This document shows, one piece after another, positions 29,981 through 35,536 of a stretch of DNA of 35,536 bases. Every line of letters begins with the position of its first letter. Position 1 is the stretch's first letter. The stretch is from Desulfobacterales bacterium (GTDB lineage Bacteria; Desulfobacterota; UBA8473). The notes under the pieces are model-generated. The model was not told the DNA's origin, did no database searches, and was given only the letters and a program-made list of their open reading frames with translations. The translations under genes and the position numbers were made by a program. The stretch covers positions 1-35,536 of the forward strand of contig JACQWO010000095.1 of assembly GCA_016209225.1 (NCBI GenBank). Reading direction: 5' to 3'.

Positions 29981-30297
29981 AGGAGAAACTCAAATCTGCC
30001 ATAGCACTTTTAAAAGATGGTGATTAAGGATTCTGTAATCAGGTCATATTATGCCATCTTTACCGCTGCAAGAGCGCTCCTTGCAACAAAAGGGCTGGAT
30101 AGTTCAAAATATTCTGGAGTAGTTGCCCTTTTTAATCAGCATTTTGTTAAAACTAAAATTGTATCTAAAGAGGCAAGCAAGTTAATAGGAAAGGCAAAAC
30201 TTTACAGGGAACAAGCTGATTATGGGGATTTCTTTGTTGTTTCCAGAGAAGAAGCAAAAACTCAAATCCAATCTGCAAAAAGATTTATTGCAGAGGT
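29976..30297 (+). pseudogene. HEPN-domain gene, truncated and frameshifted
   Basis: Upstream of 30017 the frame encodes AKEKLKSAIALLKDGD and then hits TAA; after a two-base loss the sequence continues in another frame as KDSVIRSYYAIFTAARALLA, DSSKYSGVVALFNQHFVKT and YGDFFVVSREEAKTQIQSAKRFI. Together this is a HEPN domain of the kind paired with small nucleotidyltransferases. The N-terminus is cut by the IS5-type remnant and the C-terminus runs directly into a caspase fragment. An open frame from ATG 30017 to 30460 could still make a 147-residue hybrid. Confidence 0.75.
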
Positions 30298-30645
30298 TGT
30301 CCTTGTCCTTGATTCCTGTTTTTCAGGTGCAGGAGGAAAGAGCGTTCTTGCAAAAGGGGCAATACCATTGGTTATGATGACAACAAGCACAGTTCTTCCT
30401 TCCAACATAGCCGTCCTTTCAGCAACGCAAGGCTCACAGATAAGCACATCATCTCCCTAAAAAGGGCACGGCGTATTCGCTATTTCCTCAAGGCATTGAA
30501 ATAAGGCAAAAAGACCATTACAGAGATTTATGATTATATAAAGCCACTGGTAGAAGATGAGGCAAAGGCAATCAATGTCCAGCAAAGTCCGAGCATAAAC
30601 CCTGAACCAGAAAAGTTGAAGGGAAGGTTTGGGTTGAGGAAATGA
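30288..30645 (+). pseudogene. Caspase-like (peptidase C14) gene fragment, copy A
   Basis: The sequence encodes VLVLDSCFSGAGGKSVLAKG and IAVLSATQGSQISTSSP, then TAA, a frameshift and a second stop, and finally EIYDYIKPLVEDEAKAINVQ and KGRFGLRK. It matches the last part of the intact caspase gene at 32134-33591, including the catalytic Cys, but lacks everything before it. By eye about 36 of 146 bases differ in the body, but only 4 of 75 in the tail, so it is an older paralogue with a well-preserved 3' end. The join to the HEPN sequence is at TTGCAGAGGT, shared in similar form by the intact caspase gene. Confidence 0.8.
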
Positions 30646-30648
30646 ATT
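30591..30648 (+). repeat. 58-bp caspase-tail direct repeat, copy A
   Basis: Begins GAGCATAAAC and ends TTGAGGAAATGAATT. It is identical to 31398-31455 except for one base, and similar (about 7 differences) to the end of the intact caspase gene near 33538-33595. Together with copy B it flanks the RHH-PIN gene pair. Confidence 0.85.
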
Positions 30649-30741
30649 GCAGCAACCCATATATATTCTTGACATAAACAAGTGTTGCTGCAATAATAGA
30701 ATCATAATGAATCACTTTTAGGGTCAAGGGGGGTGATGCAC

Positions 30742-31014
30742 GTGAAACAGATTACGCTGAGGAGTATACCTGATGAGATTGAAGTGATGGTTAAAAAGGA
30801 AGCAAAAGCAAAAGGTTTAAGTCTTAATAAGGCTTTCATTGCCCTACTGGAAAAGGCAACAGGTGTAAAAACAAAGGACAGAAAGAAGAAAGCGCTGTAT
30901 CATGATCTGGACAATCTGTCTGGTGTATGGTCGAAAAATGAGGCTGCGGCATTCGATAACAACCTTCAGTTACAGCGAAAAGTGGATGAGGAATTATGGA
31001 AAAAAACAAGATAA
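30742..31014 (+). CDS. FitA-like ribbon-helix-helix antitoxin
   Basis: 90 residues. MKQITLRSIPDEIEVMVKKE and KGLSLNKAFIALLEKATG form the ribbon-helix-helix typical of FitA/VapB antitoxins; the C-terminal half (HDLDNLSGVWSKNEAAAFDN) is the toxin-binding tail. I chose GTG at 30742 because AAGGGGGG lies eight bases upstream; GTG 30733 and ATG 30736 are in frame but too close to that site. The gene overlaps the PIN toxin by 19 nt. Confidence 0.82.
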   Translation: MKQITLRSIPDEIEVMVKKEAKAKGLSLNKAFIALLEKATGVKTKDRKKKALYHDLDNLSGVWSKNEAAAFDNNLQLQRKVDEELWKKTR

Positions 31015-31412
31015 TACTGGATACATCTGCTTATTCTTCCTACCTGACAGGAAACTCTGAGATTAAGTTATCAATTCAGCAGGCTGACGAGATATTTCTA
31101 AATCCTGTGATACTTGGTGAACTATTAGCCGGCTTCATAATGGGGAAAAGCCAAAAGAAAAACAGGGCGATTCTTGAGGAATTTCTTTCCTCTCCAAGGG
31201 TTAAGGTTGTGGCTATTGATGAAGAGACATCAGAAAGATATGCTGTGATTGTTAATCATCTCAGGAAAGAAGGCACCCCGATACCTACCAATGATTTATG
31301 GATTTCTGCTTCTGCCATGCAACATGGGTTAAAAGTTGTAACTACCGACAGCCACTACCTGAAGGTATCCCAGATAATAACCGAGTATTATCAGGCGGAG
31401 CATAAATCCTGA
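30996..31412 (+). CDS. PIN-domain toxin (FitB/VapC-like)
   Basis: 138-residue PIN RNase toxin. All acidic positions are kept: Asp9 in IILDTSAYS, Glu in NPVILGELLAGF, Asp in TNDLWISASA and Asp in VVTTDSHYLK. It would cleave RNA when freed from its antitoxin. Its last codons (EHKS and the TGA) come from the second 58-bp caspase-tail repeat, in a different frame from the caspase, so the gene end was set by that junction. Together with the antitoxin it forms a unit bounded by the two repeats. Confidence 0.86.
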   Translation: MEKNKIILDTSAYSSYLTGNSEIKLSIQQADEIFLNPVILGELLAGFIMGKSQKKNRAILEEFLSSPRVKVVAIDEETSERYAVIVNHLRKEGTPIPTNDLWISASAMQHGLKVVTTDSHYLKVSQIITEYYQAEHKS

Positions 31413-31455
31413 ACCAGAAAAGTTGAAGGGAAGGTTTGGGTTGAGGAAATGAATT
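31398..31455 (+). repeat. 58-bp caspase-tail direct repeat, copy B
   Basis: Copy B of the repeat described at 30591-30648, 807 bp downstream of copy A. No other caspase sequence precedes it; it abuts the PIN toxin directly and its final ATG opens the nucleotidyltransferase frame. Confidence 0.85.
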
Positions 31456-31950
31456 CCATGCTTGATTATTTTTCCGTATTTAAGAAGTTAAATGAAAAAG
31501 GGATTAGATATATTGTTGTCGGTGGCATAGCAGTCAATCTTTATGGTATCCCCAAGATGACATACGATATAGACCTTATACTTGACCTTGAAGACAAAAA
31601 CTTAGAAAAATTTCTAAAATTGTTGAAAGGATGGGGGTTCAAACCAAAGGTGCCTGTGGACATCATGGAATTTGCAGAAAAGGATAAGAGGAAAGACTGG
31701 ATAAAAAACAAGAATATGAAGGCATTTAATCGTAAACCCGGAATGGGCTATTTCAGAGATAGACATTGTGATTGATTCACCTGTAGATTATGATAAGGCA
31801 CATAAAAGAATCAATGAGATTAAACTTCATGGTGTTACAATCCCTGTAGTCTCGATTGACGATCTCATAAAGATGAAGGAAAGGACAGGGAGACAGCAGG
31901 ATAAGGCAGATATAAGATATTTAAAGGAATTGAAGGATGAGAAAAAGTAA
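31449..31950 (+). pseudogene. DUF6036/AbiEii-like nucleotidyltransferase, frameshifted
   Basis: The first frame encodes YFSVFKKLNEKGIRYIVVGG, IAVNLYGIPKMTYDIDLILD and FLKLLKGWGFKPKVP, the nucleotidyltransferase core with GG and the D-x-D of YDIDLIL. Near 31733-31740 one extra base (or two missing) shifts the frame; the sequence then continues as NPEWAISEIDIVIDSPVDYD and IPVVSIDDLIKMKERTGRQQ to a stop at 31950. The rest of the family length is present, so the damage is recent or a sequencing error. ATG 31449 lies in the repeat; ATG 31458 is better spaced from GAGG. Confidence 0.78.
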
Positions 31951-32113
31951 AGTCAAAGGCTTTGATTATTGTTTAAGCAAAGATGCGATTGAAAGATATA
32001 GAGAGAAGCCCATTGAGTTACGACTTAAATGGCTTTACATGGGAAACCTCTTGCGTAAGGGTTACAGTAAGGATGTTATTGAGATTCAGGATAAATTCAG
32101 AGAAGGGAAGTAG
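31937..32113 (+). CDS. 58-residue partner of the DUF6036 nucleotidyltransferase
   Basis: 58 residues: FDYCLSKDAIERYREKPIEL then RLKWLYMGNLLRKGYSKDVI and a basic tail. Small proteins of this type, with the K-W-L-Y-M-G-N-L-L motif, commonly sit beside DUF6036-like nucleotidyltransferases, probably as the antitoxin or cofactor; that is from memory of gene neighbourhoods. It overlaps the 3' end of the nucleotidyltransferase frame by 14 nt and has AAGGA before the ATG. The overlap supports the reading that the two frames upstream are one gene. Confidence 0.7.
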   Translation: MRKSKVKGFDYCLSKDAIERYREKPIELRLKWLYMGNLLRKGYSKDVIEIQDKFREGK

Positions 32114-32133: not shown

Positions 32134-33591
32134 ATGAAAGGGATATTTGCAGTAATTTTAATCTTTGCATTAGCAGGCTCGATGGCAGGGTGTGCGACAC
32201 CGTTGACGAATGCGGTAAGTAGGGGCGACGTCCAGCAGGTTAAAACCCTGCTTGATAGCGGAGCTCAGATTGATGAGCAAGGTGGTGACCCTTCTCGAAC
32301 ACCGTTAGCATGGGCAATAACATATAGGCATTTTGATATAGTAAAACTCTTGATTGAGAGGGGTGCAGACCTTAATTATAGGGGGATGGGATCACCTCTA
32401 TCTTGGGCCATAAAGGTTGGTGATATTAATTTGGTGAATTTTTTGATCGAGAAAGGCGCGAATGTAAATCAAATTCAATGGGATTTAAGTACACCTTTAA
32501 TGGAGGCAGCGCAAAAGAGAAACACTAATATTGTAGACCTTCTGCTGGAAAGGGGTGCTGATCTGGAATATGCAATAAATGCATGTGCCGTAAACAAAGC
32601 GCATTGGGTGTGGGGTGCTGAGCCTTGCCTTGCAACATTAAAACCAATCAAGGCTAAACAGGATAAAATCGCGCAACAGAAAGAAAAAGAGCAGGAGATA
32701 GCTAGGGCAAAAGAGATAGAAATGTTGAAGGCGAAAGAGATGAAGGACTTACTCAAAGAAGTTGTTAAGGAATCATCTATGCAAAAAACCGATTCTAAAG
32801 CCGTTCCTTCCATTCAGTCCGACATAGACAAACCCTCCTTCAGTCCGTCGGAGAGGATAATGAGAGATAACGATCTTGCAGTCATCATCGGCATAGAAGG
32901 CTACCAGAGCCTTCCAAAATCCGATTATTCGTATGACGATGCAAAACTTGTGGGTGATTATGTAAAGGCATTGGGCTTTAAGCCGAGAAATATAGAACTT
33001 CTCTTGGATGAACGTGCGACTAAGTCAGCCATTGAAAAGATTATAAAAACATGGCTTCCAAACAAGGCGAAGCCTGAAAGCAGGGTATTTGTGTATTATT
33101 CAGGGCATGGAGCACCAGAGCCAAAAACAGGAGATGCTTATATTGTGCCGTTTGATGGAGACCCAAACTACCTCTCTGATACAGGTTATCCGCTTAAAAG
33201 TCTTTATGACACTCTGGCTAAACTTCAGGTTGCAGAAGTAACAGTTATTCTTGACTCATGCTTTTCAGGTGCAGGAGGAAGGAGCGTTCTTGCAAAAGGG
33301 GCAAGGCCTTTGGTGATGATGACAGAGGGTTTCGTTTTACCGCAGAATATTGCAGTTCTATCTGCAACACTAGGAACACAGATTTCTACATCATCTCCAG
33401 AAAAAGGGCATGGCGTATTCACATACTATTTTCTCAAGGCGTTGAAGGACGGCAAAAAGACAATTACGGAGATTTATGAATACATAAAGCCACTGGTAGA
33501 AGACGAGGCAAAGGCAATCAATGTCCAGCAAAGCCCAAGCATAAATCCTGAACCAGAAAAGATAAAAGGAAGGTTTGGGTTGAGGAAGTGA
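32134..33591 (+). CDS. Ankyrin-repeat caspase-like (C14) lipoprotein
   Basis: 485 residues. A lipoprotein signal peptide with lipobox MAGC (Cys20, followed by Ala, so outer-membrane sorting is likely); three to four ankyrin repeats (about 21-150, with TPLAWAITYRHFDIVKLLIE and TPLMEAAQKRNTNIVDLLLE); a Lys/Glu-rich coiled linker (about 175-215); and a caspase-fold peptidase C14 domain (about 245-420) with catalytic His325 in YYSGHGAPE and Cys376 in LDSCFSGAGG. The domain is complete. AGGAGGCGGAGG precedes the ATG. It is predicted to act in the periplasm; the ankyrin part may bind a partner. Activation signal and substrate are unknown. Confidence 0.9.
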   Translation: MKGIFAVILIFALAGSMAGCATPLTNAVSRGDVQQVKTLLDSGAQIDEQGGDPSRTPLAWAITYRHFDIVKLLIERGADLNYRGMGSPLSWAIKVGDINLVNFLIEKGANVNQIQWDLSTPLMEAAQKRNTNIVDLLLERGADLEYAINACAVNKAHWVWGAEPCLATLKPIKAKQDKIAQQKEKEQEIARAKEIEMLKAKEMKDLLKEVVKESSMQKTDSKAVPSIQSDIDKPSFSPSERIMRDNDLAVIIGIEGYQSLPKSDYSYDDAKLVGDYVKALGFKPRNIELLLDERATKSAIEKIIKTWLPNKAKPESRVFVYYSGHGAPEPKTGDAYIVPFDGDPNYLSDTGYPLKSLYDTLAKLQVAEVTVILDSCFSGAGGRSVLAKGARPLVMMTEGFVLPQNIAVLSATLGTQISTSSPEKGHGVFTYYFLKALKDGKKTITEIYEYIKPLVEDEAKAINVQQSPSINPEPEKIKGRFGLRK

Positions 33592-33764
33592 AGATATACT
33601 TTAGTAGGCATGCAAGAAGGCAGATGAAGTGGAGGGAGGTTGCTGAAGATGAAAAGGTTATTGGTATTGAGATTATAGGGGCAACAGAGCGATATAAACT
33701 GGAAGACATCTTCAACCTTTCTACTGAAAATCTGATATTAGAAGAAACAGCGCAAAAGCGCTGA
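33588..33764 (+). pseudogene. DUF4258-DUF2283 hybrid remnant
   Basis: 58 residues from GTG overlapping the caspase stop. The first 20, KIYFSRHARRQMKWREVAED, are the start of a DUF4258 toxin-like protein (F-S-x-H-A-x-x-R-M-K). The rest, KVIGIEIIGATERYKLEDIF then NLSTENLILEE, is the end of a DUF2283 antitoxin-like protein. These two families are often neighbours, so an in-frame deletion seems to have fused the head of one to the tail of the other. The product would have neither domain whole. Confidence 0.65.
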
Positions 33765-34847: not shown

Positions 34848-35536
34848 ATGAGAATGAAGGGTGATTTAATTTCTTTAATCAGTGTAATCTTTATCCTGCT
34901 TGTGGGCATGGCGATGACAGGGTGTGCAACAACTCCATTAAGGGCACAGTTCAAAACAGAAGTTGGGGTTATCGGTATATCAAAAAAACTCCCTCTCAAA
35001 GCAGCGTTGTACGTTTCAGATACAACAAAGGCATACTCTTTTAATGCACCAATTCCTTTAGGCAGCTTGGAATATCATTTTGGAGAACATATAGAAAGAG
35101 CATCTTTCACAGCTTTTTCACAGGTATTTGAAGAAATATCAGTTGTTAGAGAGATGCGTAATCTTGACCAATTTGATATCGTAATAGAACCAGAATTCGT
35201 TAAAGAAAAGACACGAGTCAATATTGGTTTAAGTAAAATAGAAGTAACTGTCGGTCTGGCTTACCATGTATCTGACCGTGATGGTGTGTTCTGGCAGAAT
35301 GTTTTTGTTGGTGATGTGACAACTGGCGGACACAGAACTGATATAATGAAACAAGGGGAAGCCTTATCTAAAGCTGTGAAGGAGGGAGCACTCCAAATGG
35401 GGAGGGATTTCAATAGCGAGACAATAATTAATAGGCTCTATGCAAAACGCACCTCGCCCTCTACGCCTATGTTAAAAGAAAAAATTGGAGCTTTCCCTGA
35501 AATCCTACCAGCTCCCAAATCCGATGTTGACGAACT
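34848..35536 (+). CDS. Predicted lipoprotein of unknown function (3' partial)
   Basis: At least 229 residues, running off the window end without a stop. A signal peptide (LISLISVIFILLVGMAM) ends in lipobox MTGC (Cys26) followed by ATTPL, much like the caspase lipoprotein (GCATPL). The body is beta-rich: KLPLKAALYVSDTTKAYSFN, GEHIERASFTAFSQVFEEIS, DIVIEPEFVKEKTRVNIG and VFWQNVFVGDVTTGG. This outline recalls small Gram-negative surface lipoproteins but I do not recognise the family. AGGAGGTGA is ideally placed before the ATG. Outer-membrane attachment is likely. Confidence 0.75.
   Translation, partial: MRMKGDLISLISVIFILLVGMAMTGCATTPLRAQFKTEVGVIGISKKLPLKAALYVSDTTKAYSFNAPIPLGSLEYHFGEHIERASFTAFSQVFEEISVVREMRNLDQFDIVIEPEFVKEKTRVNIGLSKIEVTVGLAYHVSDRDGVFWQNVFVGDVTTGGHRTDIMKQGEALSKAVKEGALQMGRDFNSETIINRLYAKRTSPSTPMLKEKIGAFPEILPAPKSDVDE

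What the first reader, a model, noticed from the sequence alone, without database searches (positions are those of the whole stretch)
32134..33591. Outer-membrane-type lipoprotein combining ankyrin repeats with a complete caspase domain
Most bacterial caspase-like proteases in defence systems are cytoplasmic. This one has a clear lipobox (Cys20, Ala at +2), ankyrin repeats, a charged linker and a full His325/Cys376 dyad, so the protease should face the periplasm. Another lipoprotein with a nearly identical post-lipobox sequence (GCATTPL) lies 1.3 kb downstream. With the surrounding HEPN, PIN and nucleotidyltransferase toxin modules, the island could be an envelope-stress or phage-response locus; the role is speculation.
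Basis: partly seen in the sequence, partly recalled or inferred. Interest (0 to 1): 0.6.

Follow-up and report, generated by a model that had tools for sequence, protein, structure and literature searches.

The report
Envelope-anchored caspase family with swappable sensors
The gene makes a caspase-type protease that is predicted to sit outside the inner membrane on a lipid anchor; it belongs to a large, little-described bacterial family that keeps the protease constant, swaps the sensor in front of it, and usually travels with one conserved exported partner protein.

Summary
Window 32134-33591 encodes 485 aa: signal peptide, lipobox (Cys20, Ala at +2), ankyrin repeats, long helical linker and a caspase domain with His325/Cys376. 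It is one of a family. In 78 loci from Nitrospirota, 'Deltaproteobacteria', Nitrospinota and Elusimicrobiota, plus relatives' arrays, all 136 complete caspase domains keep His, Cys and the Asp of DSC. Of 121 proteins with an intact start, 87 have a lipobox and 24 another signal sequence, against 14 and 58 of 341 neighbouring proteins. The front half varies (ankyrin, PDZ, S41, CARDB, LamG) while the caspase is constant. A secreted DUF4384 protein usually lies directly downstream. The second lipoprotein (34848-35536) is a sister caspase cut off by the contig end at the caspase linker. The left HEPN and nucleotidyltransferase genes are broken; caspase 3' remnants show a decayed tandem array. A phage link found no support. 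Best reading: an envelope-facing, sensor-gated Arg/Lys protease with a dedicated partner. Exported caspases were foreseen in the literature; this architecture and operon appear undescribed. New variant of a known kind.

The parts
32134..33591 (+). Ankyrin-caspase lipoprotein gene, 485 aa
32134..32193 (+). Signal peptide with lipobox; Cys20 codon at 32191-32193
32194..32568 (+). Ankyrin repeats, about residues 21-145 (variable sensor part)
32620..32781 (+). Long Lys/Glu-rich helix, residues 163-216, linking sensor and protease
32872..33588 (+). Caspase (Peptidase_C14) domain, residues 247-485; His325 codon 33106-33108, Cys376 codon 33259-33261
34848..35536 (+). Second lipoprotein: 5' part of a sister caspase gene with another sensor domain, cut off by the contig end in the linker KSDVDE; the G001 orthologue reads on to KSDVDELPVIKAKPNKN
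30287..30646 (+). 3' remnant of another caspase gene (Cys motif kept, stop at 30458-30460), fused in frame to a HEPN remnant
31399..31453 (+). 55-bp remnant of a caspase 3' end directly after the PIN gene, 93% identical
30017..30292 (+). HEPN pseudogene: start lost (profile begins at position 26 of 117), 3' end replaced by caspase sequence
   Evidence: intact relative in L175:2695-3099
30733..31412 (+). RHH antitoxin-like gene and PIN toxin-like gene, apparently intact
31458..31947 (+). Nucleotidyltransferase (DUF2204/AbiEii-like) broken by a frameshift near 31730
31937..32113 (+). 58-aa gene of unknown function ending 20 bp before the caspase gene; same place in several other loci
33588..33761 (+). 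Fused remnants of DUF4258 and DUF2283 genes, intact between caspase and DUF4384 gene on contig C23
34061..34830 (+). MntA-like nucleotidyltransferase and HepT-like gene, apparently intact, just upstream of the second lipoprotein

Best explanation
The gene encodes an exported, lipid-anchored caspase-type protease. Shown by sequence: signal peptide and lipobox, ankyrin repeats, a complete clan CD active site, membership of a family with a constant protease and varying front domains, tandem copies, and a co-encoded secreted DUF4384 protein. Inferred: signal peptidase II lipidates Cys20 and, as residue +2 is Ala, the protein goes to the outer membrane with the protease in the periplasm (or outside). 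The front domain senses or docks onto an envelope ligand; binding frees the protease, which cuts after Arg/Lys because the Asp of DSC shapes the S1 pocket, perhaps first in its own Lys-rich linker so that the protease leaves its anchor. The DUF4384 protein is its dedicated substrate or regulator. Several paralogues with different sensors would let one cell watch several envelope signals.
For: Lipobox in 87 of 121 intact homologues and another signal sequence in 24, against 14 and 58 of 341 neighbours. No +2 Asp among the boxes. Front domains typical of the outside: PDZ, S41, CARDB, LamG. His, Cys and Asp in 136 of 136 domains. Front halves of tandem paralogues share little, caspases 50-87% in most pairs. 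DUF4384 gene directly behind the last caspase, often with a 4-bp overlap; 13 of 13 genomes with it also hold the caspase, which is found in 32 of 395; 12 of its 14 strong copies lie within 1 kb of a caspase. Model and fold matches: MALT1, metacaspase.
Against: No experiment on any member was found. Signal and lipobox calls rest on a rule-based scan, not a trained predictor, and the Lol +2 rule comes from E. coli. The loci were ranked by likeness to the full-length window protein and many are related, so the statistics are indicative only. Two of 14 strong DUF4384 copies stand alone, so the partnership is not absolute. On the window contig the DUF4384 gene is absent (the contig ends); the genome has one on contig C23. 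Nothing shows what is sensed or cut.
Confidence: 0.5

Rival explanations
1. Ordinary periplasmic processing or quality-control protease: ankyrin or PDZ parts pick substrates, the caspase trims them, with no signalling or death role.
For: Fusions to PDZ and to S41 processing proteases; Sec signals throughout.
Against: Patchy presence (32 of 395 genomes), arrays of up to six genes with diverging sensors and toxin-antitoxin neighbours do not look like housekeeping.
Confidence: 0.2
2. Surface toxin of the polymorphic-toxin kind: the caspase attacks neighbours or predators and the DUF4384 protein is its immunity partner.
For: Sec-exported toxins with ankyrin repeats and C-terminal caspases are described in PMC3482391; tandem copies, orphan 3' ends and a conserved small exported partner.
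Against: The constant part is the protease and the variable part is the front, the reverse of that plan; the protein is anchored to its own cell; DUF4384 is more uniform than immunity proteins usually are.
Confidence: 0.15
3. Phage defence: a receptor-side sensor that triggers cell death when phage damages the envelope.
For: Other bacterial caspase-like proteases act in defence (for example Craspase, PMC9729208); toxin-antitoxin genes nearby.
Against: Only generic caspase and ankyrin models hit in PADLOC; no viral relatives and one weak phage hit; no known defence effector among the scanned neighbours.
Confidence: 0.12

Closest known systems
Bacterial orthocaspases/metacaspases (Peptidase_C14)
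   Same: Fold, His/Cys dyad and Asp of the S1 pocket.
   Different: Exported and mostly lipid-anchored, with ankyrin or other extracytoplasmic front domains and a DUF4384 operon partner. The 2012 survey (PMC3501461) suspected signal peptides in some members; its held text names no ankyrin fusion and does not describe lipoprotein caspases.
Tox-Caspase of polymorphic toxins and lipobox-bearing APD effectors of Amoebophilus (PMC3482391)
   Same: Sec export, ankyrins, C-terminal caspase, lipobox in some effectors.
   Different: There the front is constant and the toxin varies; here the reverse.
EACC1-associated caspase (NF047832)
   Same: Same domain family; 64.3 bits.
   Different: Far below the 140-bit cut-off; no EACC1 partner was seen among the scanned neighbours.
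TPR-CHAT (Craspase type) and MALT1
   Same: Clan CD protease joined to protein-binding domains (for MALT1).
   Different: Those are cytoplasmic systems (established knowledge); here an exported protein without CRISPR or signalosome partners in the window.

Membership tests
Peptidase_C14 (orthocaspase/metacaspase) | Caspase domain above curated cut-off | tested here: met
   70.6 bits against 21.4
Peptidase_C14 (orthocaspase/metacaspase) | His/Cys dyad and acidic S1 residue | tested here: met
   136 of 136 complete domains
Peptidase_C14 (orthocaspase/metacaspase) | Cleavage after Arg/Lys, calcium dependence | not testable with these tools
   Needs enzyme assay
Bacterial lipoprotein | Signal peptide with lipobox Cys | tested here: met
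   Cys20; 87 of 121 homologues
Bacterial lipoprotein | Lipidation and outer-membrane location | not testable with these tools
   Only the +2 residue was checked
Polymorphic toxin | Constant front with variable C-terminal toxin domains | tested here: not met
   Reverse arrangement
Polymorphic toxin | Immunity gene directly downstream | tested here: inconclusive
   Conserved DUF4384 gene downstream, role unknown
EACC1-associated caspase | NF047832 cut-off | tested here: not met
   64.3 bits against 140
Known anti-phage system | Complete PADLOC-type system | tested here: not met
   Six proteins scanned, generic single-protein hits only

The most novel reading that the evidence does not exclude
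A modular envelope surveillance system: exported caspases with interchangeable sensors, diversified by recombination between a shared leader and a shared protease, that activate one conserved DUF4384 partner and so run a proteolytic cascade or a death programme entirely outside the cytoplasm.
Probability: 0.25. Interest if true: 0.8.

Novelty: new variant of a known kind. Interest (0 to 1): 0.5.

Why it matters
Bacterial caspases are mostly discussed as cytoplasmic death or defence enzymes. A widespread exported branch with swappable sensors and a fixed operon partner makes two open points testable: whether caspase signalling also operates in the bacterial envelope, and what DUF4384 does.

Tried and rejected
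Phage link: a viral-contig scan found no relatives, phage records gave one 29.5% hit, PADLOC only generic models. Fold of the DUF4384 partner: the model is moderate (pLDDT 78.6) and Foldseek gave no convincing match; the profile search gave only weak matches to lipoprotein chains (E 0.0095 at best). Fold of the second lipoprotein's sensor: no solved relative. Toxin-antitoxin neighbours: AbiEii/DUF2204-type genes 10 of 111 near caspases against at most 1 of 102 far away, PIN 8 against 2, the latter not significant, so toxin modules are neighbours rather than shown parts. A calcium-binding (EF-hand-like) loop is in 14 of 121 sisters but not in the window protein.

Full report
Observation. The ORF 32134-33591 is as described: 485 aa, lipobox Cys20 with Ala at +2, ankyrin repeats, charged helical linker, caspase domain with His325 and Cys376. 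AlphaFold2 gives mean pLDDT 89.5, with an ordered protease except the loop 379-397 just behind the catalytic Cys. Foldseek finds MALT1, yeast metacaspase and designed ankyrins; by sequence the only solved relative is a metacaspase (E 6e-5).

A family, not a single oddity. The same genus holds close copies (83-84% identity in two genomes) and arrays. Over these and the relatives' arrays, 136 of 136 complete domains keep His, Cys and the Asp of DSC. Of 121 non-redundant proteins with an intact start, 87 have a lipobox and 24 another signal or TM sequence by a rule-based scan; at least four of the other ten look like signal peptides by eye (L076, L104, L110, L126). Neighbouring ORFs of 250 aa or more give 14 and 58 of 341. 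No +2 Asp occurs. Caveat: loci were ranked with the full-length protein and are not independent. For comparison, the 2012 survey found TM helices in 15% of its metacaspases (PMC3501461).

Constant protease, variable front. Of 97 full-length members scanned, all hit Peptidase_C14, 54 ankyrin, 7 PDZ, 5 CARDB, 3 S41 protease, 2 each LamG, TPR and DUF2846. PDZ, CARDB, LamG and S41 fit an extracytoplasmic place. In adjacent paralogues the front parts align poorly or not at all, while caspases share about 50-87% in most pairs and 30-43% in the rest. Loci carry one to six complete genes. The domain tree mixes phyla, and the two caspases of this genome fall in different clades; bins and paralogues limit what this proves.

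Partner. Thirty-one loci hold a relative of the secreted DUF4384 protein, in most of them directly behind the last caspase, often with a 4-bp overlap; two of those loci (L056, L061) repeat contigs also held as G-genome loci. In 395 genomes of the phylum, strong DUF4384 hits occur in 13 genomes, all among the 32 with the caspase (hypergeometric p 5e-16, relatedness not corrected). Twelve of 14 strong copies lie within 1 kb of a caspase; two stand alone. A second cluster of large exported caspases in this genome also has a distant DUF4384 gene (contig C44).

The window's own locus. The contig ends at 35536. The second lipoprotein ends in KSDVDE; its G001 orthologue (85% identity) reads on to KSDVDELPVIKAKPNKN, the start of the sister caspase domain. 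So it is a second caspase lipoprotein with another sensor, probably cut where the repeated caspase sequence stopped assembly. Upstream, 30287-30646 and 31399-31453 are 3' remnants of further caspase genes. HEPN (30017), nucleotidyltransferase (31458-31947) and DUF4258/DUF2283 (33588-33761) are broken; RHH/PIN and the MNT/HepT-like pair look intact. The locus is a partly decayed tandem array with toxin-antitoxin genes between copies.

Mechanism. Shown: anatomy, family, partner. Inferred: lipidation, outer-membrane location, sensing by the front domain, Arg/Lys specificity, self-release in the Lys-rich linker, DUF4384 as substrate or regulator. I hold the anatomy near 0.9 and the sensor-gated envelope protease reading near 0.5.

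Novelty. Phrase searches for periplasmic, exported or lipoprotein caspases returned no paper in the held library, and 'caspase + lipobox + ankyrin repeat' returned two, the polymorphic-toxin survey and an unrelated proteomics paper. Sec-exported ankyrin and caspase toxins are in that survey, so the parts are known; the constant-protease, variable-sensor, DUF4384-partnered family is a new variant. The library lacks most subscription journals, so absence there is weak evidence.

Noticed in passing
window:34831-34931; L043, L045, L054, L057, L063, L064, L066, L113, L118: A leader of about 100 bp (ribosome site plus MRMKGNLISLISVIFILLVGMAMTGC) is very similar at DNA level in front of different sensor domains in different bacteria, and similarity stops just after the lipobox; window and G023 (another family of the phylum) are 95% and 94% identical to the same query.
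   Followed up: partly
window:31458-32113; L057, L058, L113, L040, L041: A nucleotidyltransferase plus a 58-aa gene of unknown family sit directly before caspase lipoprotein genes in several loci.
   Followed up: partly
L048:6837-13324: A lipoprotein caspase lies near a lipoprotein with TPR repeats and a CHAT protease domain.
   Followed up: no
L182 (contig C44 of this genome): Large exported caspases flank a distant DUF4384 gene.
   Followed up: no
L039:8518-9975 and sisters: A perfect EF-hand-like loop (DTNGDGKIEIGE) lies near the end of the caspase domain in 14 of 121 members.
   Followed up: partly
window:28857-29855: MqsA-like zinc finger, HTH and SocA/Panacea domain in one protein, an antitoxin-like regulator.
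   Followed up: no
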